DNA of 41,992 bases. Origin: Candidatus Galloscillospira stercoripullorum (GTDB taxonomy: Bacteria; Bacillota; Clostridia; Oscillospirales; Oscillospiraceae). Every line of letters begins with the position of its first letter. Positions within the stretch are counted from its first letter, which is position 1. The position numbers were made by a program, and so were the translations under genes. The stretch lies in contig DVLB01000062.1 in the NCBI GenBank assembly GCA_018715695.1, forward strand, positions 1-41,992, written 5' to 3'. The notes under the pieces are model-generated. The model saw only the letters and a list, made by a program, of their open reading frames with translations, did not search any database and had not been told where the DNA came from. Positions 8,245 to 31,145 of the stretch are shown here, in pieces.

Positions 8245-9284
8245 AATACACCATTTTCGGCGAGTCCCACGGCATGGCCATCGGCGTGGTGCTGGAGGGG
8301 GTGCCCCCCGCTCTGGAGCTGGACCTGGAGCAGGTGCAGCGGGAGCTGGACCGCCGCGCTCCCGGAAAGAACAGCCTTTCCACCGCCCGGAAGGAGAGCG
8401 ACACCGTCCACGTCCTCTCCGGCCTCTTCGAAGGCAAGACCACCGGCGCGCCCCTGTGCATGGTCATCTACAACTCCGACCAGCACTCCACCGACTACGA
8501 CTCCATCCGCTACACCCCCCGGCCCAGCCACGGGGACTACGCCGGGTTTCTCGCAAGCCTGGGGTGCAATGACTACCGGGGCGGCGGCCATTTCTCCGGC
8601 CGGCTCACCGCCCCCCTGGTGGCCGCCGGAGCGGTGGCCAAGCAGCTGCTGGCCGGGCGGGGCGTGTGGGTAGGCGCCCACATCAGCGCTGTCTACGGCA
8701 TCCTGGACCGGGCCATGGACGACCCGGAGGAGCTGCGCGCCCTGGCGGGCAGTTCCTTCCCCGTGCTGGACGAGGCCAAGGGCGAGGAGATGCGCCAGGC
8801 CATTCTGGAGGCCAAGGAGGCGCAGGACAGCGTGGGCGGGAGCATCGAGTGCGCGGTGGTTGGCCTTCCGGGGGGCCACGGAGGGCCCGACTTCGGCCGC
8901 AACGCCGAGGGCATCTTCTCCCAATACCTCTTCGCCGTACCCGCGGTGAAGGCGGTGGGCTTTGGCGCGGGGGTGAGCTTCGCCTACCTGCGGGGCAGCG
9001 AGGCAAACGACCCCTTCACCGTGGAAAACGGGCAGATCCGCACCAAGACCAACCTTTCAGGCGGCGTCAACGGCGGCATCACCAACGGCATGCCGGTGGT
9101 CTTTGAGGTCACCCTCCGACCCACCCCCTCCATCGCCCTGCCCCAGGAGAGCGTGGACCTGCGCACCGGGGAGGAAGTGGAGATCGAAATCAAGGGCCGC
9201 CACGACCCCTGCATCGTGCAGCGGGCGGTGCCCGTCATCGAGGCCGCTGCCGCCCTGGCCGCCTGCGAAGTATTGGGCATCTGA
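8241..9284 (+). CDS. aroC: Chorismate synthase
   Basis: MKYTIFGESHGMAIGVVLEGVPPALELD...RPSHGDYAGF...GGGHFSGRLTAP...LSGGVNGGITNGMP...RHDPCIVQRAVPVIEAAAALAACEVLGI. Confidence 0.97.
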   Translation: MKYTIFGESHGMAIGVVLEGVPPALELDLEQVQRELDRRAPGKNSLSTARKESDTVHVLSGLFEGKTTGAPLCMVIYNSDQHSTDYDSIRYTPRPSHGDYAGFLASLGCNDYRGGGHFSGRLTAPLVAAGAVAKQLLAGRGVWVGAHISAVYGILDRAMDDPEELRALAGSSFPVLDEAKGEEMRQAILEAKEAQDSVGGSIECAVVGLPGGHGGPDFGRNAEGIFSQYLFAVPAVKAVGFGAGVSFAYLRGSEANDPFTVENGQIRTKTNLSGGVNGGITNGMPVVFEVTLRPTPSIALPQESVDLRTGEEVEIEIKGRHDPCIVQRAVPVIEAAAALAACEVLGI

Positions 9285-9295
9285 GGGGGCGTGGC

Positions 9296-9376
9296 GGCCC
9301 GCCGCGCCTTTGGCGCGTACAAGCGTTTTGCCGTCGGCAAAACCTTGGCGCAGGCGGGATTCACTCCCGCCGAGCA
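9296..9376 (+). repeat. REP-like dispersed palindromic element, copy a
   Basis: GCGCCTTTGGCGC / GTTTTGCC-GTC-GGCAAAAC / GGCGGGA-TTCAC-TCCCGCC serial hairpins; homologous to elements near 22.1, 23.4 and 29.1 kb. Confidence 0.8.
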
Positions 9377-9394
9377 TGTGAAATGGACAGGGCT

Positions 9395-9420
9395 CCCGGG
9401 AAATGCGGGCATTTCCCGGG
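9395..9420. repeat. 12-bp perfect palindrome between REP-like element and displaced aroC tail
   Basis: CCCGGGAAATGC-GG-GCATTTCCCGGG. Confidence 0.75.
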
Positions 9421-9424
9421 ACTG

Positions 9425-9511
9425 CGCCACGACCCCTGCATCGTGCAGCGGGCGGTGCCCGTCATCGAGGCCGCCGCCGCCCTGGCCGCCTGCGAAGTGC
9501 TGGGCATTTGA
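9425..9511 (+). pseudogene. Displaced duplicate of the aroC 3' end (29 codons incl. stop)
   Basis: Aligns to 9198-9284 without gaps; 4 differences in 87 nt, all synonymous (GCT/GCC, GTA/GTG, TTG/CTG, ATC/ATT). Confidence 0.92.
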
Positions 9512-9538
9512 GACAGAAAAAACAGGAGTGAGCGTTCC

Positions 9539-10708
9539 ATGTCTGAACTGGAGGAGTACCGAGACCAAATCGACGAGGTAGACAAGGCCCTTTCGGAGCT
9601 GTTTTTGCGCCGCATGGCCATCACCGAGCAGGTGGGCCGCTACAAGCTGGAGCACCGGCTGCCCGTGCTGGACGCGGCGCGGGAGCGCCGCGTGGTGGAA
9701 ATGCGTACCGCCGCGACGGAGGACCCCGAGCGCAAGGCGGACCTCTCCGCCCTCTACGAGAGCATCATGGCCATCTCCCGCCGCCAGCAGCGGCGGCTGG
9801 TCCACGAGGGGGCGGAGGACCCGGGCTACGCCGCGTGGCTCTCCGACCAGTCCCACGCCCGCTCGCCGGTCCATGACCCCCGGGTGGTCTATCAGGGGGA
9901 GCCGGGCTGTTACAGTGAGGAGGCCGCCGTGGGCTTCTTCGGCCAAGCGGTGAAGAGCCGGGGACTTCCCTGGTTCACCGACGTGTTCGCCGCCCTGGAG
10001 CGGGGCGAGGCTGACTACGCCGTTTTGCCGGTGGAGAACTCCTCCACCGGCTCCATCCGGCAGGTCTACGACCTGCTCTCCCAGTACCGCTACCACATCG
10101 TGGGAGAGTGGCAGGTGAAGGTGGAGCACTGCCTCATGGCCCTGCCCGGGGTAACCCTGGAGGACATCCGCACGGTCTACTCCCACGAGCAGGGGCTCAT
10201 GCAGAGCGAGCGCTTTCTGGACACGCACCGGGACTGGAAGCGGGTGCCCACCCTGGACACCGCGGGCTCTGCCAAGCAGGTGGCCGCCGACGGAGACCGC
10301 ACCGCCGCCGCCATCTGCTCCCGCCGGGCCGCCGCCATCTACGGCCTCAACATCCTGGCCGAGAAGGTCAACTACAACAACACCAACACCACCCGCTTCG
10401 TGGTGGTCTCCCCGGTGCCCGAGCGCCGCTCCGAGCGCAACAAGATCAGCGCCCTCTTCACCCTGCCCCACCAGAGCGGCTCCCTCCACGAGATCCTCAC
10501 CGTCTTCGCGGTGCAGGGCCTCAACCTGCTCAAGATCGAGTCCCGGCCCATCCCGGGGCGCAACTGGGAGTACCTCTTCTTTCTGGAGTTCACCGGCGAT
10601 CTGGAGGCCCCCGGCATGGACGGCGTGCTCCACGAGCTGAGCCAGCTGGCCGCCGAGGTGCGTATCCTGGGCAACTTCAAGGCCTATGAGCCGGAGGAGA
10701 AGCCATGA
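9539..10708 (+). CDS. pheA: Bifunctional chorismate mutase / prephenate dehydratase
   Basis: N-terminal AroQ mutase (LEEYRDQIDEVDKALSELFLRRMAITEQVGRYK) plus PDT (VYQGEPGCYSEEAAVGFFG...) and ACT (HQSGSLHEILTVFAVQGLNLLKIESRPIPG). Confidence 0.96.
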   Translation: MSELEEYRDQIDEVDKALSELFLRRMAITEQVGRYKLEHRLPVLDAARERRVVEMRTAATEDPERKADLSALYESIMAISRRQQRRLVHEGAEDPGYAAWLSDQSHARSPVHDPRVVYQGEPGCYSEEAAVGFFGQAVKSRGLPWFTDVFAALERGEADYAVLPVENSSTGSIRQVYDLLSQYRYHIVGEWQVKVEHCLMALPGVTLEDIRTVYSHEQGLMQSERFLDTHRDWKRVPTLDTAGSAKQVAADGDRTAAAICSRRAAAIYGLNILAEKVNYNNTNTTRFVVVSPVPERRSERNKISALFTLPHQSGSLHEILTVFAVQGLNLLKIESRPIPGRNWEYLFFLEFTGDLEAPGMDGVLHELSQLAAEVRILGNFKAYEPEEKP

Positions 10709-11205
10709 ATCTGGTGCTCATCGGTATGCCGGGCAGCGGCAAGTCTACCGTTGGAAAGATCCTCTCCCAGCTGCTCCATATGCCCCTGGCGGACACCGAC
10801 GATTTGGTGGAGCGCTCCGCTGGGAAAACCATTCCGGAGCTCTTTGCCTCGGAGGGAGAGGCGGCCTTCCGGGATCGGGAGACCGCTGCCGCCCGTGAGG
10901 CGGCTTCCCTTGACGGCGCTGTCATTGCAACGGGCGGCGGCATCGTCCTGCGAGAGGAGAACATGCGCATCCTCGCGGCCACGGGGCTCATCTTCTTCCG
11001 GGACCGGGACCTTGAGGACATTCTGGGCGAGGACCACATGGGCCGCCCCCTGGTGGGCAAGGACCCGGAAAAGCTGCGCGTTCTCTATGCGCAGCGTATA
11101 GACCTCTATCGAAAATACGCTCAGTATACCATCTCCCACACGAAAACAGCGGAGGAAGCGGCGGCGCGCATCGCCGCGCTCTACAAGGAGGCGTGCCAGA
11201 AATGA
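10705..11205 (+). CDS. aroK: Shikimate kinase
   Basis: [59 protein letters not shown]...[12 protein letters not shown]. Confidence 0.96.
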
Positions 11206-11627
11206 AGTTTCTCATCTTAAACGGCCCCAACCTGAACCTGCTGGGCTCCCGGGAGCCGGGCATCTACGGCGAGAACAGCTATGAGGCCCTGTGTGAGCGG
11301 CTGCGTGCCTTTGCCGCCGCCCACGGCTCCACCGCCGACTGCTTTCAGTCCAACCACGAGGGGGCCCTCATCGACGCCATCCACGCCGCGGCGGGTGCTT
11401 ACGACGCCATCATCATGAATCCCGGCGCCTTCACCCATTATAGCTACGCCATTCTGGACGCCCTCAAGGCGGTGGACGTGCCCTGCGTGGAGGTGCATAT
11501 CTCCAACGTCCACCAGCGGGAGGAGTTCCGCCACAAGAGCGTCACCGCCCCGGCCTGCGTGGGTCAGATCTGCGGTCTGGGCCTCTACGGGTATGAGGCC
11601 GCCATCTCCTATTTCCTGAGCCTGTAA
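11202..11627 (+). CDS. aroQ: Type II 3-dehydroquinate dehydratase
   Basis: [23 protein letters not shown]...[14 protein letters not shown]...[17 protein letters not shown]...[19 protein letters not shown]. Confidence 0.97.
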
Positions 11628-11639
11628 AGGAGGAGGGCC

Positions 11640-12500
11640 ATGCAGGTCAACCTGGAAAACACCACGAAAAAGCTCTGCGTCATCGGTGACCCGGTGCTCC
11701 ACTCCAAGTCCCCCCTGATCCACAACACCATGCTCTCCGCCCTGGGGCTTGACTACATCTACCTGTGCCAGAGCGTGCCCCGGGGGCAGGCGGCGGAGTG
11801 GCTCAAGTGCGCCAAATGCGCCGCTTACGCCGGCTTCAACGCCACCATGCCCCACAAGGAGGAGCTCTTCCCCCTGATGGACGAGACCGACTCTGACGCC
11901 GCCCTCTTCCGCTCGGTCAACACGGTCTGCATCCGGGACGGCAGAGCTTACGGCTACAACACCGACGGCCGGGGCTTTATCCGCTCCCTGGTGGACCTGG
12001 GCACCTCGCCGGAGGGAAAGACCGTGCTGCTGCTGGGAGCGGGGGGCGCCGCCCGGGCGGTGGCCCTCAAACTCGCGCAGCAGGGGGCCCTTAAGGTATT
12101 GGTGTGCAACCGGACGGTGGAGAAGGCCGCCGTCCTGTGCGCGTCCGACCCCTTGGACCGCCTCATCCCCGCCCCCTTCGACGGCGGCACCCTGCGCCGC
12201 CTGGCAGAAGAGGCCGACCTGGTTGTCAACTGCACCAGTCTGGGCATGGCGGGCACCTCCGGGCAGTTTGAGGACTTCTCCTTCCTGGAGGCCCTGCGTC
12301 CCGGTGCACCGGTCCTGGACCTCATCTACGCCCCCGCCGAGACCGAGCTGCTCCGCCGGGCCAAGGCCCTGGGCCACCCCACTGCCAACGGCCTGGGCAT
12401 GCTGGTCTACCAGGCGGTGTTCGCCTTGGAGCACTTTACGGACACCCCCATAGACCCCGCCGCCATGCTGGCGCTGCTGCGCCCCGTCCTGGGGCTTTGA
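11640..12500 (+). CDS. aroE: Shikimate dehydrogenase
   Basis: KKLCVIGDPVLHSKSPLIHNTMLSALGLDYIYL...GFNATMPHKEEL...GRGFIRSL...VLLLGAGGAARAVALKLA. Confidence 0.96.
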   Translation: MQVNLENTTKKLCVIGDPVLHSKSPLIHNTMLSALGLDYIYLCQSVPRGQAAEWLKCAKCAAYAGFNATMPHKEELFPLMDETDSDAALFRSVNTVCIRDGRAYGYNTDGRGFIRSLVDLGTSPEGKTVLLLGAGGAARAVALKLAQQGALKVLVCNRTVEKAAVLCASDPLDRLIPAPFDGGTLRRLAEEADLVVNCTSLGMAGTSGQFEDFSFLEALRPGAPVLDLIYAPAETELLRRAKALGHPTANGLGMLVYQAVFALEHFTDTPIDPAAMLALLRPVLGL

Positions 12501-12509
12501 GGCCCGCGC

Positions 12510-12557
12510 GGGTCGATCGACAGTCTCTGCCGGACGGACAAAAGTGTCCGTCCGGCT
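12510..12557 (+). repeat. 48-nt direct repeat, copy 1 (contains 12-bp stem hairpin A)
   Basis: GGGTCGATCGACAGTCTCTGCCGGACGGACAAAAGTGTCCGTCCGGCT, identical to 12703-12750. Confidence 0.97.
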
Positions 12558-12686
12558 CGGCTTGACGAAAAGGTCTTTTCGTCAAGCCGACGGACTTTTG
12601 AGCCCTTCAAAAACAGGGTTCAAAAGTCATTTGATCAGACGCGAAAGACAACCCTGACGGTTTTCTTTCACACTATCTTTCCCTCC
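12557..12686 (-). repeat. Structured repeat copy 1: hairpin C, hairpin B, 57-nt core
   Basis: C: CGGCTTGACGAAAAG-GT-CTTTTCGTCAAGCCG (12558-12589); B: 12593-12628; core 12630-12686 is the exact reverse complement of 15640-15696. Confidence 0.95.
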
Positions 12687-12702
12687 GAGCCCTTGGGCAG
12701 GT

Positions 12703-12750
12703 GGGTCGATCGACAGTCTCTGCCGGACGGACAAAAGTGTCCGTCCGGCT
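12703..12750 (+). repeat. 48-nt direct repeat, copy 2
   Basis: Identical to 12510-12557. Confidence 0.97.
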
Positions 12751-12778
12751 TCTCTTGGAGTGAAGAAAGGCAGAGCGT

Positions 12779-15169
12779 ATGAGCAAATCACTTTTCTGTA
12801 AAAACTGGACTGTCTCCGCCCTGGGGGAGGAGGACCGGGCCGTCCCCGTCACCCTTCCCCACGACGCCATGCTCTCTGAGCCCCGCACGGCGCAGTCCGC
12901 CGGCGGGATCAACACGGGGTGGTTCATGGGCCGGGACTATGTCTATCAAAAAACCTTTGCGGCCCCGGCAGAGTGGGCGGATCGGGCGGTGTTCCTGGAG
13001 TTTGAAGGCGTATACCGAAACGCGGAGGTCTTTGTCAACGGCCATCGCGCCGCCTTCCAGCCCGGCGGCTACACCGGCTTTTTCGTGGCTTTGGAGGGTC
13101 TAATCCGTCCGGGCGGGGAAAACCACGTCAAGGTCATCGCCCGCAACGCCGACCAGCCCAACTCCCGCTGGTACTCCGGCGCAGGCATCTACCGCCCGGT
13201 GTGGCTCCACGTTCTTCCTCCAAACCACATCGCCCTCAACGGTCTGAAGCTCCAAACCCTGGGCCACGTCTCCCCTGCCGTCCGGGTGTCGGTCACCCTG
13301 TCCTGCTGCGGCACCGCCCAGGTTCAGATTCTGGACGGCGGCAGGGAGCTGGCCCGGGCGGAATGCCATTGCCAGCCCGAGGGCACGGCGGACATCCCGC
13401 TCCCCGGCGCCCAGCTGTGGAGCCCCGATCACCCCAAGTGCTACACCTGCCGCCTCACCTTCGGGGAGGATGTGCGGGAGACCTCCTTTGGGGTGCGCAC
13501 CGTCTCCTGCGACAGCAAGAGCGGCCTGTGCATCAACGGAGAGCGGGTCATACTCCGGGGCGCCTGCATCCACCACGACAACGGCCTTCTGGGGGCGGTG
13601 GCCCTCCCCGAGGCGGAGGAGCGGAAGGTGCGTCTGCTCAAGCAGGCGGGCTACAACGCCATCCGCTGCGCCCACAACCCCTGCTCCAAGGCCCTGCTGG
13701 ACGCCTGCGACAATCTGGGCATGCTGGTGCTGGACGAATACACCGACATGTGGTACATCCACAAGACCCGCTTTGATTACGCCCAGTACATGCCCGACCG
13801 CTGGCGGGAGGACCTGTCCGCGCTGGTGGACAAGGACTTCAACCACCCCAGCGTGATCATGTACTCCATCGGCAACGAGGTGTCCGAGACCGCCCAAAAG
13901 CGGGGCATTGAGCTGACCGGGCAGATGACGGAGTACCTCCACCAGCTGGACACCCGCCCGGTGACCTGCGGCATCAACATTTTCTTTAACTTCCTCAGCT
14001 CCCTTGGGCTGGGGGTATACAGCGACAAAAAGGCGGAAAAAGCCGCGTCTGCCGGCGGCACGCCCTCCAAAAGAAAGGCGGTGGGCAGCGAGTTTTTCAA
14101 CAACCTGACCGGATTGCTGGGTGCGGACTTTATGAAGTTCGGGGCCACCCTCCACGGCAGCGACGTGAAGACCCGGGACGCCTTTGCGCGGCTGGATGTG
14201 GCCGGATACAACTACGGGGAAAAGCGCTATGAGCGGGACCTGAGGCGCTATCCTCACCGGGTCATTCTGGGCAGCGAGTCCTTCTGCGGTGACTGCGCCC
14301 GGTTCTGGGACCTGGCCAAGCGTCACCCCGCCCTCATCGGCGATTTCATGTGGGCGGGCATGGATTACCTGGGCGAGGTGGGCATCGGGGCCATGGAGTA
14401 CAGAGACTACGCGCCCGACTTTAGCCACGGTCCGGGCTGGCTCACCGCCGGTGTGGGCGTTCTGGATGTGACCGGCGCCTCCACCGGCCAGACCGCTTAT
14501 GTTCAGGCGGCCTTTGAGCTGTCCCCCATCCGCATGGGCGTGGTCCCCGCCCACCGCGCCCGGGAGGCCCACTCCCCCTCCGCCTGGCGCATGAGCAACG
14601 CCCACGAGAGCTGGGCCTGGAACGGCTGCGAGGGGAAGGAAACCCGGGTGGAGGTCTACGCCAGGGGCGCCAAAGCGGCTCTCTTTCTCAACGGCAAGCC
14701 CGTGGGGGAGAAAAGGCTGGACCGGAACAGCCGGGCAGCCTTCCGGGTGGTTTGGCAGCCGGGGGAGCTGACCGCCGTGGCCTACGGCTCAGATGGGGCC
14801 GAGCTGGGCCGCACCAGCCTGAAGAGCGCCGGAGAGGAGACCCGTCTCTCCGTCGAGCCGGAGCAGCCCCAGGCCCAAGCCGGGAAAGCGTGCTACATCC
14901 GGCTGCGCTACACCGATCAAAACGGTCTGCTCAAGCCTCTGGCCCGGGGGGAGATCCGCGTGGCGGTGGAGGGCGGTGAACTGCTGGCCCTGGGAAACGC
15001 CTGCCCTTACAACCAGCAGGGCTACCTGACCGACGCCACCGACACCTACTATGGCCAGGCCCTGGCCATCATCCGGCCCGACGGTCCCGGAGCGGTCACC
15101 TTCCGGGCGGAGAGCCCCTACGGCAGCGCCCAGATCACCATACCCTGCCCGCAGGAAGAGATCGGGTAA
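12779..15169 (+). CDS. Glycoside hydrolase family 2 protein (beta-galactosidase/beta-glucuronidase-like)
   Basis: GH2 architecture: VTLPHDAML...GINTGWFMGRDYVYQKTF...SRWYSGAGIYRPVWLHV...LRGACIHHDNGLLGAV...AIRCAHNPCSKALLDACDNLGMLVLDEYTDMW...SIGNEV...ILGSESF. Confidence 0.93.
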   Translation: MSKSLFCKNWTVSALGEEDRAVPVTLPHDAMLSEPRTAQSAGGINTGWFMGRDYVYQKTFAAPAEWADRAVFLEFEGVYRNAEVFVNGHRAAFQPGGYTGFFVALEGLIRPGGENHVKVIARNADQPNSRWYSGAGIYRPVWLHVLPPNHIALNGLKLQTLGHVSPAVRVSVTLSCCGTAQVQILDGGRELARAECHCQPEGTADIPLPGAQLWSPDHPKCYTCRLTFGEDVRETSFGVRTVSCDSKSGLCINGERVILRGACIHHDNGLLGAVALPEAEERKVRLLKQAGYNAIRCAHNPCSKALLDACDNLGMLVLDEYTDMWYIHKTRFDYAQYMPDRWREDLSALVDKDFNHPSVIMYSIGNEVSETAQKRGIELTGQMTEYLHQLDTRPVTCGINIFFNFLSSLGLGVYSDKKAEKAASAGGTPSKRKAVGSEFFNNLTGLLGADFMKFGATLHGSDVKTRDAFARLDVAGYNYGEKRYERDLRRYPHRVILGSESFCGDCARFWDLAKRHPALIGDFMWAGMDYLGEVGIGAMEYRDYAPDFSHGPGWLTAGVGVLDVTGASTGQTAYVQAAFELSPIRMGVVPAHRAREAHSPSAWRMSNAHESWAWNGCEGKETRVEVYARGAKAALFLNGKPVGEKRLDRNSRAAFRVVWQPGELTAVAYGSDGAELGRTSLKSAGEETRLSVEPEQPQAQAGKACYIRLRYTDQNGLLKPLARGEIRVAVEGGELLALGNACPYNQQGYLTDATDTYYGQALAIIRPDGPGAVTFRAESPYGSAQITIPCPQEEIG

Positions 15170-15194
15170 ACCCGGGCGGGTCCGGCGGCAGGCT

Positions 15195-15228
15195 CAGGGC
15201 CGGCGCTGCAAAAGCAGCGTCGGCCCTG
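15195..15228. terminator. Bidirectional terminator between GH2 gene and spoIIID
   Basis: CAGGGCCGGCGCTGC-AAAA-GCAGCGTCGGCCCTG; convergent genes. Confidence 0.75.
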
Positions 15229-15229
15229 T

Positions 15230-15478
15230 TCATTCTCCCCTGTATTTGCGCTGGGTGGCGATGCCGCCCCGGATATGCCGCTGGGCCTTGTTTTCGTCCA
15301 GCACCGGCTTGACCTGGTCATATAGGGTCTTGTGGAAGGCGGGCAGCCGCTCGGAGAGGTCCTTATGTACGGTGGACTTGGAGATGCCGAACCGCTGGGC
15401 CGCCTTGCGCACCGTCGCCTTGTTCTCTATCATGTAAAGCGCGATCTGACAGGCGCGCTCCTCGATGTTCTTCTTCAA
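15230..15478 (-). CDS. spoIIID: Sporulation transcriptional regulator SpoIIID
   Basis: (M)KKNIEERACQIALYMIENKATVRKAAQRFGISKSTVHKDLSERLPAFHKTLYDQVKPVLDENKAQRHIRGGIATQRKYRGE; TTG start at 15478 after GGGGAG. Confidence 0.95.
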   Translation of the reverse strand: MKKNIEERACQIALYMIENKATVRKAAQRFGISKSTVHKDLSERLPAFHKTLYDQVKPVLDENKAQRHIRGGIATQRKYRGE

Positions 15479-15578
15479 AAGACAACACTCCCCGCACTTG
15501 ATTTCCGCTGGCCTATCTATATGCGCCGCGGCGCGGGGATATGTGGCGCTCCGGCCCTCCGGAGGCAAAAGAAAACGC

Positions 15579-15768
15579 CGGGCGTCCCCCCAGTGGGGAC
15601 GCCCGAGCCTGTCGATAAACCCTCCTGGCCAAAGAATCCGGAGGGAAAGATAGTGTGAAAGAAAACCGTCAGGGTTGTCTTTCGCGTCTGATCAAACCAC
15701 TTTTTGAAACCTTCTTTAGGGTTTCAAAAAGTGCCTCAGCCTGTCGAAAAGACTTTTTCGACAGGCTG
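15579..15768 (+). repeat. Structured repeat copy 2: hairpin A', 57-nt core, hairpins B' and C'
   Basis: A' CGGGCGTCCCC-CCAGT-GGGGACGCCCG (15579-15605); core 15640-15696; B' CACTTTTTGAAACC..GGTTTCAAAAAGTG (15698-15733); C' CAGCCTGTCGAAAA..TTTTCGACAGGCTG (15737-15768). Confidence 0.95.
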
Positions 15769-21744: not shown

Positions 21745-21786
21745 TTACACGTTGAACCGGAACGAAGCGATGTCCCCATCCTTCAT
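21745..21786 (-). pseudogene. Displaced, degenerate ychF 3' tail (copy 3)
   Basis: Minus-strand MKDGDIASFRFNV* versus MKDGDIVLFRFNV* in the intact gene. Confidence 0.85.
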
Positions 21787-21978: not shown

Positions 21979-21980
21979 CT

Positions 21981-22007: not shown

Positions 22008-22025
22008 CCCCCGCCCTTTTCAACA

Positions 22026-22130
22026 GCTCGGGGCAAGTGAATTGCCCCTGCGCCAAGGTTTTCGCCTCATGCGAAAACGCTTGTACGGCGCGCTGCGCCG
22101 CCCCGCGCTGCGGGGCCCCAGGAAAAGGGC
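22026..22130 (-). repeat. REP-like dispersed palindromic element, copy b
   Basis: Plus strand: CTCGGGGCAAGTGAATTGCCCCTGCGCCAAGGTTTTCGCCTCATGCGAAAACGCTTGTACGGCGC...; reverse complement aligns with copy a. Confidence 0.8.
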
Positions 22131-22134
22131 CTTA

Positions 22135-23244
22135 TTACACGTTGAACCGGAACAGAACGATGTCCCCATCCTTCATCACATACTCCTTGCCCTCGGAGCG
22201 GACCAGGCCCTTTTCCTTGGCTGCGTTCATGGAGCCGCAGGCCTTCAGGTCTTCGAAAGAGACCACCTCCGCCCGGATGAAGCCCCGCTCGAAGTCGGTG
22301 TGGATCTTGCCGGCGGCCTGGGGGGCCTTGGTGCCCTTGCGGATGGTCCAGGCCCGGCACTCGTCCTCCCCACTGGTAAGGAAGGAGATGAGGCCCAGCA
22401 GGGCGTAGCTGGCCTTGATGAGCCGGTCCAGCCCAGACTCGGCCACCCCCAGCTCCTCCAGGAACATCTTCTTCTCGTCCTCGTCCAGCTCAGCGATCTC
22501 CGCCTCCAGCTTGGCGCACACAGGGAGCACCTGGGCCCCCTCCCGGGCGGCCAGCTCCTCCACAATCTTATAGTAGGGATTGCTCTGGCAGTCGGCGAAG
22601 CCCGCCTCGTCCAGGTTGGCGGCATAGATGATGGGCTTGAGACTCAGCAGCTCGGCGGTGGCGATGATAGCGGCGTCGTCCTCGTCACACTGGAAGGAGC
22701 GGGCCGAATTGCCGTCGTTGAGCCAGGAGCGCAGGGCGGTGAACACCTCCACCTCATGGAGGAACTTCTTGTCCCCCTTGGCGGCCTTCTGCGCCTTGTC
22801 GATGCGCCGCTCCACCATCTCAACGTCGGCCATGATGAGCTCGATGTCGATAACGCCGATGTCCCCGGCTGGGTCCACAGGCACGTTGGTGCTGGTGTCG
22901 GCCACCACATGCATGATATTCTCATCGTCGAAGCAGCGCACCACATGGACGATGGCGTCGCATGCGCGGATATTGGAGAGGAACTTATTGCCCAGGCCCT
23001 GGCCCTGGCTGGCTCCCTTCACAAGGCCGGCGATGTCCACGAATTCCACCACGGCGGGGGTGGTCTTCTTGGGCTGATAGAATTCAGAGAGCCAGGTGAG
23101 GCGGCTGTCGGGCACGGCCACCACGCCCACGTTGGGATCGATGGTGCAGAAGGGGTAGTTGGCGCTCTCAGCGCCGGCGTTGGTAATGGCATTGAACAGG
23201 GTGCTCTTGCCCACGTTGGGCAGGCCCACGATACCTAACTTCAT
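22135..23244 (-). CDS. ychF: Redox-regulated ATPase / Obg-like GTPase YchF
   Basis: MKLGIVGLPNVGKSTLFNAITNAGAESANYPFCTIDPNVGVVAVPDSRL...VDIAGLVKGASQGQGLGNKFLSNIR...FRFNV. Confidence 0.97.
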   Translation of the reverse strand: MKLGIVGLPNVGKSTLFNAITNAGAESANYPFCTIDPNVGVVAVPDSRLTWLSEFYQPKKTTPAVVEFVDIAGLVKGASQGQGLGNKFLSNIRACDAIVHVVRCFDDENIMHVVADTSTNVPVDPAGDIGVIDIELIMADVEMVERRIDKAQKAAKGDKKFLHEVEVFTALRSWLNDGNSARSFQCDEDDAAIIATAELLSLKPIIYAANLDEAGFADCQSNPYYKIVEELAAREGAQVLPVCAKLEAEIAELDEDEKKMFLEELGVAESGLDRLIKASYALLGLISFLTSGEDECRAWTIRKGTKAPQAAGKIHTDFERGFIRAEVVSFEDLKACGSMNAAKEKGLVRSEGKEYVMKDGDIVLFRFNV

Positions 23245-23394
23245 CGGAATTGACCTTCTTTCGCTGTTTTCATCCGAAATTATACCCGACCCCGCCGCAA
23301 AACACAAGGGAATCTTTCCGGCGGCCCAGGGGCAATTCATTTGCCACGAGCAGTTCAATCGTCGAGGGTGGAGGCAGCGCGTCTCCCCGCTGCA

Positions 23395-23505
23395 CCCATC
23401 GCAGGCCAAACCGGCCTTCTGGCCGGCGGCGCCTTTGCGCCGTACGAGTGTTTTGCCGCAGGCAAAGCCTCGGCGCAGGGGCAATTCATTTGCCCCGAGC
23501 ATTTC
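23395..23505 (+). repeat. REP-like dispersed palindromic element, copy c
   Basis: GGCGCCTTTGCGCCGTACGAGTGTTTTGCCGCAGGCAAAGCCTCGGCGCAGGGGCAATTCATTTGCCCCGAGC; a further partial hairpin CAGGGGCAATTCATTTGCC lies at about 23327. Confidence 0.8.
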
Positions 23506-23520: not shown

Positions 23521-23564
23521 CCAAAACAAAACGGCGCCCCGAATGGGGTGCTGTTTTGTTTTGG
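23521..23564. terminator. Long terminator-like palindrome attached to displaced tRNA tail
   Basis: CCAAAACAAAAC-GGCGCCCC-GAAT-GGGGTGCT-GTTTTGTTTTGG. Confidence 0.7.
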
Positions 23565-23592
23565 TGCAGGTGACGAGGCTCGAACTCGCTAT
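23562..23592 (-). pseudogene. Displaced tRNA-Gly 3' tail (T arm, acceptor strand, CCA)
   Basis: Plus strand TGG-T-GCAGGTGACGAGGCTCGAACTCGCTA matches the intact tRNA TGG-A-GCAGGTGACGAGGCTCGAACTCGCTA except the discriminator base. Confidence 0.9.
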
Positions 23593-23622: not shown

Positions 23623-23711
23623 GCCCCGGTACCTCTGGATTTTCAAAAAACGCGGCTACACCGCGTTTTTGGGTGGAGGCAGCGCGTTCGAGCCGGGAAA
23701 CCTTGCAGAAC

Positions 23712-23751
23712 ATAAGAAAAACGGACTGCAAAAGCAGTCCGTTTTTCTTAT
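23712..23751. terminator. Terminator after tRNA-Gly (18-bp perfect stem)
   Basis: ATAAGAAAAACGGACTGC-AAAA-GCAGTCCGTTTTTCTTAT. Confidence 0.85.
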
Positions 23752-23752
23752 A

Positions 23753-23828
23753 TGGAGCAGGTGACGAGGCTCGAACTCGCTACCTCCACCTTGGCAAGGT
23801 GGCGCTCTACCAGATGAGCTACACCTGC
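23753..23828 (-). tRNA. tRNA-Gly (anticodon GCC), CCA encoded
   Basis: GCAGGTGTAGCTCATCTGGTAGAGCGCCACCTTGCCAAGGTGGAGGTAGCGAGTTCGAGCCTCGTCACCTGCTCCA; 7-bp acceptor, TTGCCAA anticodon loop, GTTCGAGCC T loop. Confidence 0.97.
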
Positions 23829-23873
23829 AGCGACAGGGAGTATTATAACCACTTTCTCCCCGTCTGTCAAGGG

Positions 23874-25049: not shown

Positions 25050-25056
25050 ATCTCCC

Positions 25057-25656
25057 TCAGTAGCCCAGCTCCTGCTCCACGATGACCACCTCCGCGTGGG
25101 CAAAGCAGGTGGGCTTTTCCCATAGAACGGTGAGGGCCCGGCAGATGCGCTCGGGGCTTTGGCAGTCGTAGCACTTGTCGGCCTTGGCGGCGCAGGGGGT
25201 CTTTTTCCCCAGCCGCTGCGCGTTCTTGGGCGCGGCGATGTTCCGGGCCCGCCAGAGGGCGCCCTCGTAGTCTGGGGCGATCTTGTTGACGCCGATGATG
25301 ATGTACAGCTCCCGGTGGCCGAAGCAGGTGGAGGCCACCCGGTTGCCGGTGCCGTCGATGTTGACGAGCTCTCCGGTCTCCGCCACGCCGTTCATGGAGG
25401 TGAGATAGACCTCGGTGGCCATGGCGTCTGCAGGGGCTGCGGGCTTCTGGGCATCCCAGTGCCAGAGGACCTCATTGTGGGTGCGCAGCTTCTCCATCAG
25501 GCCCATGTCCCGCACGGTCACGGAGCCGCCGCAGCCCACGCTTTTCCCGTCGATCTTGCCGTCCAGATAGGCCACGGCCTCCTCCGCCGTGGCAAAGCAG
25601 GCGGTGGCGAAGCCCCGCCGTTCCAGGTTCTCCCGCAGTTTTGCAATGTCTGCCAT
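25057..25656 (-). CDS. LUD (lactate utilization, LutC/DUF162-like) domain protein
   Basis: AKLRENLERRGFATACFATAEEAVAYLDGKIDGKSVGCGGSVTVRDMGLMEKLRTHNEVLWHWD...ISP-type NKIAPDYEGALWRARNIAAPKNAQRL. Confidence 0.88.
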   Translation of the reverse strand: MADIAKLRENLERRGFATACFATAEEAVAYLDGKIDGKSVGCGGSVTVRDMGLMEKLRTHNEVLWHWDAQKPAAPADAMATEVYLTSMNGVAETGELVNIDGTGNRVASTCFGHRELYIIIGVNKIAPDYEGALWRARNIAAPKNAQRLGKKTPCAAKADKCYDCQSPERICRALTVLWEKPTCFAHAEVVIVEQELGY

Positions 25657-25702
25657 AAAGCTCGCTCCTTTCATTTTCCCCTCTGGCCGGGCCAGGGCCC
25701 GG

Positions 25703-26578
25703 TCAGAGATCGTTTTGCCTAAACTCCCGGAAGCCGTCCCCCAGCACCTCATGGGCGTCGCACACGATGACAAAGGCGGAGGGATCGATCTCCTTGACCA
25801 GTTTCTTGATGGGCACGATCTGCCGCTGCTTGAAGGCGCACATAAGCACCTTTTTCTCCGTCCCGGAGTAGGCCCCCTCGCCCTGGAGGATGGTCACGCC
25901 CCGGTCCAGGTCCCGCACCAGGGCGTCGGAAATGGTGCGGTAGGAATCGCTGATGATATAGGCCACCTTGGCGCTGTCCATGCCGTAGAGCATGCGGTCC
26001 ATGACGATGGAGGCGATATACAGGGCCACCAGGCCGTACAGGGCACTATACACGCTGCCGAAGGCCAGGGCCGTGGCCACGATGACCACCAGGTCGGTGG
26101 CCATGAGCAGGTTCCCCATGGGGAGCCACCCGATTTTCAGCTTGAGCAGCCGGGCGATGAGGTCGGTGCCGCCGGTGGTGGCACCCTGCCGGAAGACCAT
26201 GCCCAGGGAGGCGCCCATGAGCACGCCGCCGAAGATGCAGGCCAGCAGGGGGTCCATGGCCTCAAAGGTCCACAGGCTGTCGGTCAGGTCGATGAACACT
26301 GAGGAGATGAACATGGCATACAGGGAGGAGAAAAGCAGATGTCCTCCCAGCAGCCGCCAGCCCAGGATGAACAGCGGCACGTTGAGGATGATGACCACCG
26401 TGCCGATGGGGGCCCAGGGCAGGAAGAAGTTGATGATCTGGCCCACGCCGGTGATGCCGCCGAAGCCGATGTCGTTTGGCTTGTAGCACCAGTTGAAGCC
26501 CACGGCGTAGAAGGCCGAGGCCAGGGTGATCATCAGATAGGACCACCCCAGGGAAAAGATTTTGGATTTCAGTTTCAT
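25703..26578 (-). CDS. YitT family membrane protein
   Basis: MITLASAFYAVGFNWCYKPNDIGFGGITGVGQIINF...RQGATTGGTDLIARLL...GRGVTILQGEGAYSGTEKKVLMCAFKQRQI-like DUF2179 tail. Confidence 0.93.
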   Translation of the reverse strand: MKLKSKIFSLGWSYLMITLASAFYAVGFNWCYKPNDIGFGGITGVGQIINFFLPWAPIGTVVIILNVPLFILGWRLLGGHLLFSSLYAMFISSVFIDLTDSLWTFEAMDPLLACIFGGVLMGASLGMVFRQGATTGGTDLIARLLKLKIGWLPMGNLLMATDLVVIVATALAFGSVYSALYGLVALYIASIVMDRMLYGMDSAKVAYIISDSYRTISDALVRDLDRGVTILQGEGAYSGTEKKVLMCAFKQRQIVPIKKLVKEIDPSAFVIVCDAHEVLGDGFREFRQNDL

Positions 26579-26643
26579 GACTCCCTCTCACACTTGCCGC
26601 GGGGCGCGTGCCCCCGGCGGGTTTGGGCTGCGTGTCCGGCGTC

Positions 26644-28887
26644 TCAGAGCAGGGTGAGCTGCTCCTCTCCCCGGTCCTCCTCCCGCAGGAGCGCGCCGGC
26701 GATGGGAAGGGACCGGGCCCGGTAGCGGGCGGGATTGACGATCTGGGTCTGGGAGAGCGGCTTGACCCAGTCCACACGGTACTTGGGCTTGAGGGTCATC
26801 ACGTTGACTCCTTGGGTAGACCGGGTGGTCTTGGGGCTCAGGACGGCGGTGTGGAAGACGAGGCACCGGCCCTCGGTGGAGACCACTGCCAGCTCCAGGT
26901 CCTCCCGCAGCAGGAAGGCCGCGGCCAGAGGTGACTTGTCGCTGTATGCACCGGTGAGCTTCTTGCGCCGGGTCTGGGTCTGGTAGGCCGAGAGCTCCAC
27001 CCGGGCCGCCTTGCCGTTTTGGAAGAAGAAGAGCAGGTGCCCGGTGTAATCCCCGCTCAGGCAGGCCCACACCACGTTCTCCCCCGGCTCCATGCCCAGC
27101 TTGGTGGGCAGATAATCGCCCAGGACGCTGGCCTTGGCATCGTCGAAATCGCTTAGGCGGCTTTTGTAGCACTGCTGCTTGTCGGTGAAGACCAGCAGCT
27201 CGTCCCGGTTGGTACACTCCCACTCCAGCCAGCCGCCGTCTCCCTCCTTGTACTTCTGCTCGCTGTTCATGCGCAGAGAGGCGGGGGTGATCTTCTTGAA
27301 ATAGCCCTCCCGGGAGAGGAAGGCGGTCACCGGGTAGTCTGGGACCTTCTCGGCCTCATCGGTCTCGGCGGCGGTCTGGTACTCATAGACGATCTCGGTG
27401 CGGCGGGGCTGAGCGTATTTCTTCTTGACCGCCGCAAGCTCCTCTATGATGATCTTCTTGATGCGGCCGGGGGTTTCCACGATGTCCCTGAGGTCGGCGA
27501 TCTCCTCCTCCAGGGTTGAGGTTTCCTCAATACGCTTGAGGATATACTCCTTGTTGATGTTGCGCAGCTTGATGTCGGCCACATACTCGGCCTGGGTGGA
27601 GTCGATGCCAAAGCCGATCATCAGGTTGGGCACCACCTCGGCGTCCTCCTCGGTGTCCCGGATGATCTTGATGGCCCGGTCGATGTCCAGCAGGATCTTC
27701 TTGAGGCCCTTGAGAAGGTGGAGCTTGTCCTCCTTCTTCTTCATAACGAAGAAGGTACGCCGGCGCACCCCGTCCATCCGCCAGGCGCTCCACTCCTCCA
27801 GGATCTCGGCCACCCCCATGACCCGGGGCATACCGGCGATGAGAATGTTGAAGTTGCAGCCAAAGGAGTCCATAAGAGGGGTGGTGCGGAAGAGCTTGAG
27901 CATGAGCTTGTCAGGATCTGTGCCCCGCTTGAGGTCGATGGTCAGCTTCAAACCGTTCAGGTCGGTCTCATCGCGCATATCGGCGATCTCCTTGACCTTT
28001 CCGGTCTTAATGAGCTCGGAGACCTTGTCCATCACCGCCTCCACGGTGGTGGAGTAGGGGATCTCATAGATCTCGATGATGTTCTCGCTCTTGAGGTAGC
28101 GCCAGCGGGCGCGCACCTTGAAGGAGCCCCGGCCGGTGCTGTAGATCTGGGCCATCTCGGCGGCGTCGTAGAGCAGCTCGCCGCCGGTGGGGAAGTCAGG
28201 GGCCTTGAGGACGGTGGTGAGATCCACCCCCGGGTTCTTGAGGTATGCAGCCGCTGCGTCGCACACCTCCCCCAGGTTGAAGCCGCAGATATTGCTGGCC
28301 ATGCCCACGGCGATACCCATGTTGGCCGAGACCAACACGTTGGGGAAGGTGGTGGGCAGAAGGGCGGGCTCCTGCATGGAGCCGTCGTAGTTGTCCACAA
28401 AGTCCACGGTGTCCTGGTCGATGTCCCGGAAAAGCTCGGCGCAGATGGGGTCCAGTCGGGCCTCGGTGTACCGGCTGGCGGCCCAGGCCATGTCCCGGGA
28501 ATAGACCTTACCGAAGTTGCCCTTGGAGTCCACGAAGGGGTGGAGCAGGGCCCCGTAGCCCCGGGAGAGGCGGACCATGGTGTCGTAGATGGCGGCGTCG
28601 CCGTGGGGATTGAGCTTCATGGTCTGACCCACGATGTTGGCGCTCTTGGTGCGGCTGCCCGAGAGCAGCTTCATCTGATACATGGTGTAGAGAAGCTTGC
28701 GGTGGGAGGGCTTGAAGCCGTCGATCTCCGGGATGGCCCGGGAGACGATGACGCTCATGGCGTAGGGCATGTAGTTGAGTTCCAGCGTCTGGGTGATGGG
28801 CTGCTCCAGCACCTCGGGTCGCAGGCCCATGACGTTGGGGTTATTTACCTTTTTGGCCCCCTCCTCGGGGGCTTTCTTCTTGGCCAT
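26644..28887 (-). CDS. parC: DNA topoisomerase IV/gyrase subunit A
   Basis: LNYMPYAMSVIVSRAIPEIDGFKPSHRKLLYTMYQM...GDAAIYDTMVRLSRGY...AASRYTEARL (catalytic Tyr). Confidence 0.9.
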   Translation of the reverse strand: MAKKKAPEEGAKKVNNPNVMGLRPEVLEQPITQTLELNYMPYAMSVIVSRAIPEIDGFKPSHRKLLYTMYQMKLLSGSRTKSANIVGQTMKLNPHGDAAIYDTMVRLSRGYGALLHPFVDSKGNFGKVYSRDMAWAASRYTEARLDPICAELFRDIDQDTVDFVDNYDGSMQEPALLPTTFPNVLVSANMGIAVGMASNICGFNLGEVCDAAAAYLKNPGVDLTTVLKAPDFPTGGELLYDAAEMAQIYSTGRGSFKVRARWRYLKSENIIEIYEIPYSTTVEAVMDKVSELIKTGKVKEIADMRDETDLNGLKLTIDLKRGTDPDKLMLKLFRTTPLMDSFGCNFNILIAGMPRVMGVAEILEEWSAWRMDGVRRRTFFVMKKKEDKLHLLKGLKKILLDIDRAIKIIRDTEEDAEVVPNLMIGFGIDSTQAEYVADIKLRNINKEYILKRIEETSTLEEEIADLRDIVETPGRIKKIIIEELAAVKKKYAQPRRTEIVYEYQTAAETDEAEKVPDYPVTAFLSREGYFKKITPASLRMNSEQKYKEGDGGWLEWECTNRDELLVFTDKQQCYKSRLSDFDDAKASVLGDYLPTKLGMEPGENVVWACLSGDYTGHLLFFFQNGKAARVELSAYQTQTRRKKLTGAYSDKSPLAAAFLLREDLELAVVSTEGRCLVFHTAVLSPKTTRSTQGVNVMTLKPKYRVDWVKPLSQTQIVNPARYRARSLPIAGALLREEDRGEEQLTLL

Positions 28888-28935
28888 TGGCTTCCATCCT
28901 TTTCAAAGGGTTGTTTCTGGATATGCCGCCCGGTT

Positions 28936-28986
28936 TTACGAAATATCCGCCAGCTCCAGGTATTTATACCCGTTGTCGGCGATATG
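28936..28986 (-). pseudogene. Displaced parE 3' tail (17 codons incl. stop)
   Basis: CATATCGCCGACAACGGGTATAAATACCTGGAGCTGGCGGATATTTCGTAA = HIADNGYKYLELADIS*, same peptide as the intact gene end with five synonymous/stop-type codon differences. Confidence 0.93.
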
Positions 28987-29035
28987 CCTCCCCAGCCGGC
29001 CCAGGCCGGCCGGGGGCCCCGGATTTCACTTCCTC

Positions 29036-29140
29036 GGGGCGAGTGAATCGCCCCTGCGGCAAGGTTTTGGCCCAAAGGCCAAAACGCTTGACGCCGCTTG
29101 GCGGCGGCTCGCTTCCGCTCGCAAGGGCCATATCGCCCGG
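29036..29140 (-). repeat. REP-like dispersed palindromic element, copy d
   Basis: Plus strand CTCGGGGCGAGTGAATCGCCCCTGCGGCAAGGTTTTGGCCCAAAGGCCAAAACGCTTGACGCC...; same hairpin order as copies a-c. Confidence 0.8.
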
Positions 29141-29162
29141 CGGCTCGGCATAGTTGCAGGTC

Positions 29163-31145
29163 TCAGGAAATATCCGCCAGCTCCAGATACTTATACCCGT
29201 TATCGGCGATATGGTCCTTCCGCCCCTGGAGGTTGTCCCCCAGCAGCAGGTCGAAAACGGCGGCGGTGCGCTCCACGTCCTCGGGCATGACCTTGATGAG
29301 GCGCCTGGTCTCTGGGTTCATGGTGGTCAGCCACATCATGTCCGGCTCGTTCTCACCCAGGCCCTTGGACCGGGCGATGGTGTACTTTTTACCCTCCAGT
29401 TCCCGCACAATATCGTTTTTCCCCTTGTCGGAGTAGGCAAACCAGGTCTTCTCCTTACAGTTGATCTCGTAGAGGGGAGACTCGGCGATATACACATACC
29501 CCCGCTGGATAAGGGTGGGGGTGAGGCGGTAGAGCATGGTGAGGATAAGGGTGCGGATCTGGAAGCCGTCCACGTCGGCATCGGTGCAGATGACCACCTT
29601 ATTCCACCGAAGGTTCATCAGGTCAAAGGCGGCCAGGTCCTTGGCGCGTTTGTCGCTGACCTCCACACCGCAGCCCAGCACCTTCAAGAGGTCGGTGATG
29701 ATCTCGCTCTTGAAGATCTTACCGTAATCGGCCTTGAGGCAGTTCAAAATCTTGCCCCGCACCGGCATGATGCCCTGGAACTCGGCATCCCGGCTGAGCT
29801 TGACGGCGCCCATGGCGCTGTCGCCCTCCACGATGTAGAGTTCCCGCCGCTCGGTGTCCTTGGTGCGGCAGTCCACGAACTTCTGCACCCGGTTGGAGAT
29901 GTCCACGCTGCCCGAGAGCTTCTTCTTGATGTTGAGCCGAGCCTTCTCGGCGTTTTCCCGGGAGCGCTTGTTGATGAGCACCTGCTCGCCGATCTTCTGG
30001 GCGTCGAAGTGGTTTTCGATGAAGTAGACCTCCATCTGGCTCTTGAGGAAGTCGGTCATGGCCTCCTGGACGAACTTGTTGTTGATAGCCTTCTTGGTCT
30101 GGTTCTCGTAGGAGGTCTGGGTGGAGAAGTTGTTGCTCACCAGGATGAGACAGTCCTGGATGTCGTTCCAGGTGATCTTGCTCTCGCTCTTCTGGTACTT
30201 ACCTTGGGCTTTCAGGTAGCCGTCGATGGCAGAGACGAAAGCCGAACGCACGGCCTTTTCAGGGCTGCCGCCATGCTCCAGCCAGGAGGAGTTGTGGTAG
30301 TGCTCGATGATCTGCACCGTATTGGAAAAGCAGAAGGACACGCTCAGCTTCACCTTGTATTCCGGCTTGTCCTCCCGGTCCCGGCCACGGCGCTCGGTCT
30401 GCCAGAATACGCTCTGGGTGAGGGAATTCTCCCCGGCGAGCTCCTTAACATAGTCCTCAATGCCGTTTTCGTACTTGAACTCGGTGGTCTCGAACTTGCC
30501 CCCCACCTGGTTGCGGAATCGGAAGGTGACCCCGGCGTTGACCACCGCCTGGCGCTTCATCACATCCAGGAAATAGTCCACCGGGATATCGATGTCGGTA
30601 AAGACCTCCAAGTCGGGCTTCCAGCGGAATTTGGAGCCGGTCTTCTTGCCCGCGTAGGGCTCTTTCTTCAGCCCCCCGATATTCTCGCCCTTTTCAAAAT
30701 GGAGGGAATACTCAAAGCCGTCCCGGTGGATGACGGCGTCGAAGTACTCGCTGGCGTACTGCGTGGCGCAGGAGCCCAGACCGTTCAGGCCCAGGGAGTA
30801 CTCGTAGTTGTCGCCGTCGTTGTTGTTGTACTTGCCGCCGGCGTACAGCTCGCAGAACACCAGCTCCCAGTTGTACTTCTGCTCCGTCTCGTTCCAGTCC
30901 ACGGGGCAGCCCCGGCCGAAATCCTCCACCTCGATGGACTTATCCTCGTACCGGGTGACGGTGATGACGCTGCCGTGACCCTCCCTGGCCTCATCGATGG
31001 CGTTGCTCAGGATCTCAAAGACCGCGTGCTCGCAGCCCTCCAGACCATCGGAGCCGAAGATAACCGCCGGGCGCTTGCGGACCCGGTCGGCTCCCTTCAG
31101 GGAGGAAATGGATTCATTGCCGTAGGATTTGCTTGCTTTGGCCAT
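29163..31145 (-). CDS. parE: DNA topoisomerase IV/gyrase subunit B
   Basis: GADRVRKRPAVIFGSDGLEGCEHAVFEILSNAIDEAREGHG...LYIVEGDSAMGAVKLSRD...VICTDADVDGFQIRTLIL. Confidence 0.9.
   Translation of the reverse strand: MAKASKSYGNESISSLKGADRVRKRPAVIFGSDGLEGCEHAVFEILSNAIDEAREGHGSVITVTRYEDKSIEVEDFGRGCPVDWNETEQKYNWELVFCELYAGGKYNNNDGDNYEYSLGLNGLGSCATQYASEYFDAVIHRDGFEYSLHFEKGENIGGLKKEPYAGKKTGSKFRWKPDLEVFTDIDIPVDYFLDVMKRQAVVNAGVTFRFRNQVGGKFETTEFKYENGIEDYVKELAGENSLTQSVFWQTERRGRDREDKPEYKVKLSVSFCFSNTVQIIEHYHNSSWLEHGGSPEKAVRSAFVSAIDGYLKAQGKYQKSESKITWNDIQDCLILVSNNFSTQTSYENQTKKAINNKFVQEAMTDFLKSQMEVYFIENHFDAQKIGEQVLINKRSRENAEKARLNIKKKLSGSVDISNRVQKFVDCRTKDTERRELYIVEGDSAMGAVKLSRDAEFQGIMPVRGKILNCLKADYGKIFKSEIITDLLKVLGCGVEVSDKRAKDLAAFDLMNLRWNKVVICTDADVDGFQIRTLILTMLYRLTPTLIQRGYVYIAESPLYEINCKEKTWFAYSDKGKNDIVRELEGKKYTIARSKGLGENEPDMMWLTTMNPETRRLIKVMPEDVERTAAVFDLLLGDNLQGRKDHIADNGYKYLELADIS

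What the first reader, a model, noticed from the sequence alone, without database searches (positions are those of the whole stretch)
9198..29213. Recurring architecture: intact gene end, palindrome-rich repeat, then a displaced second copy of the same gene's 3' tail (four loci, five tails)
Seen directly at aroC, ychF (two displaced tails), tRNA-Gly and parE. Each locus has a different target sequence, but displaced and intact tails are always separated by short palindrome-rich repeats: the REP-like family (copies a, b, d) at aroC, ychF and parE, and the GGGGCCCC hairpin at ychF and tRNA-Gly. The distal tail sits next to what looks like the native downstream junction (pheA RBS, parC RBS, a terminator). 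The gene-proximal tail therefore looks like the newcomer, like tRNA-targeting integrative elements that carry a replacement 3' end, but applied to protein genes. Differences in the aroC and parE tails are all synonymous, arguing for import of a diverged allelic tail rather than duplication plus decay. Inference: an undescribed gene-tail-replacing insertion or homology-facilitated illegitimate recombination process coupled to REP-like elements.
Basis: partly seen in the sequence, partly recalled or inferred. Interest (0 to 1): 0.88.

Follow-up and report, generated by a model that had tools for sequence, protein, structure and literature searches.

The report
Guide-bearing RNA cassettes duplicating gene ends
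In gut Oscillospiraceae, short folded elements of about 100-150 bases, each carrying a 12-23 base stretch that mirrors its own insertion site, sit behind genes together with a second copy of the gene's last 30-110 bases; no described mobile element or RNA family found here does this, and the machinery is unknown.

Summary
The "REP-like repeat" is one structured element family (hairpins P2-P5; no Rfam match), found in 91 of 300 genomes of the family, including complete genomes and isolates. 127 of 166 copies are flanked by a long direct repeat (median about 58 bp), against 2 of 153 control positions. In 90 of 113 clear cases the repeat is the 3' end of the adjacent gene, element in sense orientation.

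New finding: between gene end and element lies a 12-23 nt inverted copy of the target that straddles the start of the duplicated tail (about -5 to +8; 71 of 113 have at least 9 nt, about 2% when permuted). It follows the target as species diverge. Empty sites exist at parE and lepA; at lepA every filled species has an empty sister.

Tail differences are 238 synonymous to 41 nonsynonymous, so duplication followed by simple decay is excluded.

Best reading: site-specific, guide-matched cassettes gained and lost at gene ends, probably RNA-guided homing. The enzyme was not found: reverse transcriptase, Y1, TnpB and IS110 are each missing from element-rich genomes. No recent spread to new sites was seen. 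Mechanism is therefore inferred.

The parts
9198..9285 (+). aroC tail copy 1 (intact gene end)
   Evidence: 84/88 identical to copy 2, all differences synonymous
9290..9300 (+). guide CGTGGCGGCCC, reverse complement of target 9194-9204, spanning the start of copy 1
9300..9378 (+). element core (hairpins P2, P3, P4)
   Evidence: R1 91.9 bits
9395..9420 (+). terminal hairpin P5 next to copy 2
   Evidence: sequence; fold
9425..9512 (+). aroC tail copy 2, followed by the pheA junction
29159..29213 (-). parE tail copy 1 (intact gene end)
29128..29137 (-). parE guide GGCGATATGG
29029..29108 (-). element core
   Evidence: R1 79.0 bits
28990..29016 (-). terminal hairpin P5
28932..28986 (-). parE tail copy 2, followed by parC; single tail in the empty relative G020
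22132..22213 (-). ychF tail copy 1 (intact gene end)
22120..22131 (-). ychF guide GGCCCTTTTCCT
22023..22102 (-). element core
   Evidence: R1 86.0 bits
21897..21978 (-). ychF tail copy 2
21745..21786 (-). ychF third, short diverged tail behind another P5-like hairpin (older remnant, no guide seen)
23753..23782 (-). tRNA-Gly 3' part, copy 1 (within the intact tRNA 23753-23828)
23672..23694 (-). tRNA-Gly guide, 23 nt with 2 mismatches, complementary to tRNA positions 39-61 and spanning the copy boundary at 46/47
23562..23591 (-). tRNA-Gly displaced tail with the second terminator behind it
23425..23503 (+). class II copy of the element, antisense, behind the second tRNA terminator
   Evidence: R1 86.8 bits

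Best explanation
A family of small site-specific cassettes. One cassette adds, at a point f|A near the end of a gene: a gene tail (A...stop), a short spacer that may hold a terminator or RBS, a guide of 12-23 nt equal to the reverse complement of f|A, and a structured element E (hairpins P2-P5, sometimes P1) whose 3' end abuts the second tail. The gene stays intact because a complete tail is always on the gene side. SHOWN: this anatomy, its breadth, guide-target co-change, E structure conserved by compensatory change, empty sites, patchy gain/loss at one site within a genus, tail differences mainly synonymous, tandem arrays. INFERRED: E is transcribed; its guide base-pairs with the target at f|A and directs insertion there (homing into the same gene of other strains), most simply by a nick at f|A that is extended through E and the donor tail (target-primed copying). 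Since the target f|A is recreated, repeated insertion yields tandem arrays, and recombination between the two tails removes the cassette without a scar. The enzyme is unknown.
For: Direct repeats at 127/166 copies against 2/153 controls. Guide at least 9 nt at a fixed place (-5..+8) in 71/113 against about 2% permuted. Where targets differ between species, both guides match their own target at 41 positions; the guide stays unchanged at 12. Structure: 99.4% of cells paired, 214 double changes, 0/500 shuffles as high; G-U exceeds A-C 24:7. Empty site at parE; lepA filled in 4 of 17 Flavonifractor-group species, each with an empty sister, cassettes 86-92% identical while native downstream DNA is about 50%, and cassette divergence 8-14% against 17-26% at fourfold sites. 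E follows the target gene (0.83) rather than the genome (0.76). At truB, E is 93% identical between two species whose truB DNA around the site is only about 73% identical. 90/113 sense at gene ends. Tail differences 238 syn: 41 nonsyn. Tandem arrays.
Against: No enzyme is consistently present: RVT_1 absent from 9/22 element-rich near-complete genomes, Y1 from 7/22, TnpB from most, IS110 from complete G078, G128 and G205. No recent dispersal to a new target in any genome. Divergence of lepA cassettes follows the host gene, so vertical descent with many losses fits as well as homing. 42 of 113 copies have no guide of at least 9 nt. Most class II (tRNA) copies have no tail duplication. Transcription of E is not shown.
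Confidence: 0.42

Rival explanations
1. The cassette is a host-useful RNA element at gene ends (3' UTR regulator or intron-like unit): the guide pairs with the gene tail in the same mRNA, and tail 2 is kept because it is sometimes joined to the gene body. Conservation is selection on that function, not on mobility.
For: Strong structural covariation and conservation well above flanking non-coding DNA; guide co-changes with the coding target; arrangement rc(A)rc(f) resembles a splice-guiding internal guide sequence; in lepA and pgi tail 2 changed almost only at synonymous positions after the species split.
Against: In the truB cases gene and element face opposite ways, so the guide cannot pair with that mRNA, yet it is equally conserved. 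Tail 2 carries an in-frame stop in lepA of G327 and is frameshifted or lost its end in L158, L097 and L029. Terminators lie between the tails in L031, L039 and L075. Closest relatives lack the unit.
Confidence: 0.2
2. Single-stranded-DNA element of the REP/IS200-IS605 style: hairpins in one DNA strand are cut by a Y1 (HUH) transposase in trans, the guide pairs with the cleavage site, and a circle E|A1...Z1 x guide is excised and pasted at f|A.
For: Predicted product equals the observed junctions; IS200/IS605 and REP systems recognise subterminal hairpins (PMC6006769, PMC8266576); Y1 genes in 15/22 element-rich against 3/11 element-free genomes.
Against: Y1 absent from 7/22 element-rich near-complete genomes and from both genomes of this genus; guide of 12-23 nt is far longer than the short guides known to me for IS200/IS605 (own knowledge); G-U excess points to RNA; at truB the tail did not travel with E.
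Confidence: 0.14
3. No dedicated machinery now: ancient insertions, inherited vertically and often lost by recombination between the tails; tails kept alike by gene conversion and exchange with empty alleles, guide and hairpins kept complementary by palindrome-correcting template switching.
For: Cassette divergence follows the host gene; tails homogenised within genomes; no dispersal to new sites; no enzyme found.
Against: Does not explain the initial guide, its fixed position, or cassette conservation at 86-92% beside 50% identical flanks. G-U over A-C bias argues for selection on RNA rather than on DNA palindromes. E at truB is closer than the hosts allow.
Confidence: 0.2
4. Strain-mix misassembly of the metagenome bin.
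For: The window genome is a fragmented bin.
Against: Same architecture in complete single-contig genomes and isolates and in independent species.
Confidence: 0.01

Closest known systems
Mobile group II introns (retrohoming)
   Same: RNA with target-complementary guide spanning the insertion site; site-specific homing into the same gene site; target-primed copying is the mechanism proposed here.
   Different: No intron-encoded reverse transcriptase in the unit and none in 9/22 element-rich genomes; no Rfam match; about 100-150 nt of simple hairpins; creates a second copy of the target tail; gene works without splicing.
REP/BIME and REPIN repeats mobilised by RAYT (TnpA_REP)
   Same: Short, palindromic, non-coding, extragenic, many copies per genome, presumably acted on in trans.
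   Different: 12-23 nt locus-specific guide, long tail duplication, copies track their target gene rather than amplifying in the genome, Y1 protein not consistently present, structure leans to RNA.
tRNA- or gene-3'-end integrative elements and prophages that carry a replacement 3' end
   Same: Insertion at a gene 3' end with the gene restored by an element-side tail and the native tail displaced; differences between tails synonymous.
   Different: Unit of about 150-250 bp without integrase; each copy fits one target; inverted copy of the site inside the element; at truB the element moved without the tail.
IS200/IS605 (and TnpB/IscB guide RNAs), IS110 bridge RNAs
   Same: Hairpins plus short guides that pair with target/cleavage site.
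   Different: No such ORF in the cassette; family members missing from element-rich complete genomes; tail duplication of 25-140 bp is not produced by these systems as known to me.

Membership tests
REP/RAYT system | Y1 (HUH) transposase in the genome | tested here: not met
   Y1_Tnp absent from G000, G001 and 7 of 22 element-rich near-complete genomes
REP/RAYT system | 20-40 bp palindrome tagged with GTAG or CGTC | tested here: not met
   Elements are about 100-150 nt with four or more hairpins; in the aligned copies no such conserved tag is seen
REP/RAYT system | within-genome amplification of near-identical copies | tested here: not met
   Only tandem arrays exceed 0.95 identity within a genome, tRNA class II reaches 0.93
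Group II intron | Reverse transcriptase/maturase available | tested here: not met
   RVT_1 absent from 9/22 element-rich genomes, including complete G159, and from G000 and G001
Group II intron | Conserved intron RNA (domains known to Rfam) | tested here: not met
   No Rfam match to the element in the window or six other loci
Group II intron | Guide base pairing to the target | tested here: met
   (guide-like complementarity; pairing itself not shown)
Gene-3'-end integrative element | Gene restored by element-side tail, native junction behind distal tail | tested here: met
Gene-3'-end integrative element | Integrase encoded in the element | tested here: not met
   Inserts are 83-378 bp, typically about 150, with no room for one
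IS110 bridge-RNA element | DEDD IS110 transposase in the genome | tested here: not met
   Absent from complete G078, G128 and G205, which carry 32, 8 and 20 model hits
TnpB/IscB guide RNA | TnpB-like nuclease in the genome | tested here: not met
   PF07282 absent from most element-rich genomes; IscB not searched separately
Any described RNA family | Match to a curated covariance model | tested here: not met
   (4227 Rfam families)

The most novel reading that the evidence does not exclude
A natural RNA-guided rewriting system for gene ends: a small RNA with a self-renewing guide directs copying of itself, together with a functional gene tail, into the matching site of other alleles, by an enzyme not yet described, in a way that never breaks the target gene. 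In effect a naturally occurring prime-editing-like homing element without its own protein.
Probability: 0.25. Interest if true: 0.95.

Novelty: categorically new. Interest (0 to 1): 0.8.

Why it matters
It defines an abundant, apparently undescribed repeat/RNA family in common gut bacteria in which each copy carries a record of its own target. If the guide directs insertion, it is a new kind of site-programmed mobile element that spares its host gene, and its unknown enzyme would be worth finding. Even if it is only a conserved regulator, it explains a recurrent source of duplicated gene ends, patchy indels and assembly trouble in Oscillospiraceae genomes.

Tried and rejected
Misassembly (refuted by finished genomes and isolates). 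Plain long target-site duplication plus decay (rejected). Free transposon bursts within a genome (no near-identical copies at different targets). Dedicated reverse transcriptase, Y1, TnpB or IS110 partner: none universal. Larger autonomous versions with an ORF between the tails: none found in 8-kb loci of copies lacking a short repeat. Phage carriage: no exact pattern match in viral contigs. Known RNA family: none. Intron model: weakened by antisense truB cases and broken second tails. RNA-guided nuclease homing: judged unlikely because the filled allele keeps an intact f|A target. Literature searches found no description of such elements; the library is open-access only. Ordinary gene calling failed in this GC-rich DNA because of long antisense ORFs and was replaced by a GC3-weighted call. 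My regular expression missed the variant elements of another family of the order.
Full report
OBSERVATION. The window is contig 42 of a 1.88-Mb, 121-contig, 74% complete bin. A direct-repeat scan around every copy of the aroC repeat found in this genome and its one sister genome showed that most copies are flanked by direct repeats of 30-114 bp, with different genes involved each time.

BREADTH. A covariance model (R1, hairpins P3 and P4) built from 24 copies hits 91 of 300 genomes of the same family, 48 of 106 genera, including single-contig genomes (32, 8, 20 and 10 hits in four finished genomes). An exact pattern scan returned named isolates: Flavonifractor plautii ATCC 29863, Pseudoflavonifractor, Oscillibacter valericigenes and others. 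In a sample of the order, one other genus (four genomes) is equally rich and a few more genomes have single hits. No viral contig has the pattern and no Rfam family matches.

ANATOMY. Of 166 distinct copies, 127 are flanked by a direct repeat of score at least 16, against 2 of 153 shifted control positions. In 113 analysable cases the repeat is 25-210 bp (median about 58) and the insert is mostly 115-220 bp. Order: gene body f | tail 1 (A...Z) | spacer x | guide | element E | tail 2 (A...Z) | native downstream DNA. E consists of P2, P3 (CAAGCGTTTTGCC...GGCAAAACCTTG), P4 (around TTCAC) and the terminal P5 hairpin (GGGGYCCCC...GGGG), which usually ends 0-3 nt before tail 2. About half of the copies have a further P1 hairpin. 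The repeats lie at gene ends: in 90 of 113 the left gene runs into tail 1 in sense orientation, and homology between the tails stops at the stop codon (22 exactly, most within -9 to +10 nt), even when the tails are 100% identical. In about 17 cases the left gene is antisense and its start codon lies in or near the repeat (truB type). Tail 1 often brings its own terminator or RBS in x (L031, L039, L075, L145, L147).

GUIDE. The 5' part of the insert contains the reverse complement of the sequence around the start of tail 1. 71 of 113 have an exact match of at least 9 nt; when insert and target are exchanged between loci about 2% do. The pairing region is about -5 to +8 relative to the tail start, longer in some targets (about 20 nt at lepA; 23 nt with 2 mismatches at tRNA-Gly in the window). 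Between species with the same target gene, where the target base differs, both guides match their own target at 41 positions, while the guide stays unchanged at 12. So the guide follows the target. Two cautions: copies with weak guides exist, and the tail start is defined by the alignment, which can shift by a few bases.

STRUCTURE. On 114 distinct copies 99.4% of cells are paired, 14 of 17 pairs have double changes, and no shuffle or slid control comes near (the alignment was fitted to this structure). G-U exceeds A-C in stems 24:7, which leans to an RNA of the element strand.

EMPTY SITES AND DYNAMICS. In G020, parE has a single tail directly followed by parC. At lepA, in the genus of G181, five genomes carry the cassette and thirteen do not; G118, 96.6% identical in lepA, has a precise empty site. 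In the lepA tree of 17 species the four filled species are scattered and each has an empty sister. Their cassettes are 86-92% identical although native non-coding DNA downstream is about 50% identical and fourfold sites differ by 17-26%. This means repeated loss or horizontal homing plus strong constraint; the agreement between cassette and gene divergence favours vertical descent with loss, while truB (E 93% identical between hosts about 73% identical around the site) favours horizontal movement. E resembles E at the same target in other genomes (0.83) more than E at other targets in the same genome (0.76, equal to background). Within genomes the only near-identical pairs are tandem arrays, plus tRNA class II copies at 0.93. 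So this is not a freely jumping transposon; it is bound to sites.

TAILS. Codon differences between the two tails are 238 synonymous to 41 nonsynonymous; random change would give 22% synonymous. Both tails therefore descend from working coding sequence until recently. Within a genome tails are 0.94 identical, between genomes 0.81, and pairs group by genome 48:1. In lepA and pgi the tail split predates the species split and tail 2 still changed almost only at silent sites. Elsewhere tail 2 is broken (in-frame TAG in G327; L158, L097, L029), and no broken tail 1 was seen. I infer turnover: insertion, exchange with empty alleles, gene conversion and deletion between the tails.

MECHANISM. The fixed guide position, the fixed E|tail 2 junction, recreation of the target in tail 1, and tandem arrays fit copying from a nick at f|A through E and the donor tail (target-primed), directed by guide pairing. 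The enzyme was sought: RVT_1, Y1, TnpB-like and IS110 are each missing from element-rich near-complete genomes. A universal partner outside these families, or loss of activity in many lineages, remains possible. A nuclease-only homing model is unlikely because filled alleles keep the target intact. A host-function model and a no-machinery model remain open.

CLOSEST KNOWN. It works like retrohoming or gene-end integration in outcome, but defining features of group II introns, REP/RAYT, IS200/IS605-TnpB, IS110 and integrase elements were tested and not met. I rate it categorically new as an object, with the mechanism unproven.

Noticed in passing
window 12510-12564 and 12703-12757; 12622-12698 vs 15628-15704: A second, unrelated hairpin-rich repeat behind aroE: a 55-bp direct repeat with a hairpin in each copy, around a segment that recurs inverted 3 kb away.
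   Followed up: no
L010 (sister genome G001) versus window 9198-9512: The sister genome has a cassette in aroC too, but at a different site nearer the stop codon, matching the site used in L103 and L179: aroC is hit independently at two sites.
   Followed up: partly
window 23425-23503 (+) and loci L008, L020, L032, L034, L036, L037, L049, L052, L059, L060: Class II copies with another 3' module lie at a fixed distance behind tRNA genes, antisense to the tRNA, mostly without a detectable tail duplication.
   Followed up: partly
window 23288-23354 (+): Weak, degenerate element copy just upstream of ychF (R1 19 bits).
   Followed up: no
L007 (G000 contig 39, about 1600): An element followed by an rpsI tail but with no rpsI gene in front: a displaced tail away from its gene, or a contig join.
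   Followed up: no
L273 (G118) versus L269 (G181): The single lepA tail of empty G118 is a mosaic of the two tails of filled G181, as expected if the cassette was lost by recombination between the tails; not conclusive.
   Followed up: partly
L303-L320 (another family of the order): Same element plan with a different P3 sequence (GAAGTTGCTTGCC...); only some copies have tail repeats.
   Followed up: partly
G078 contig 1, 2934802-2935285 and 2855975-2856373: Three-unit tandem arrays of tail + guide + element; units in such arrays are 97-99% identical.
   Followed up: partly
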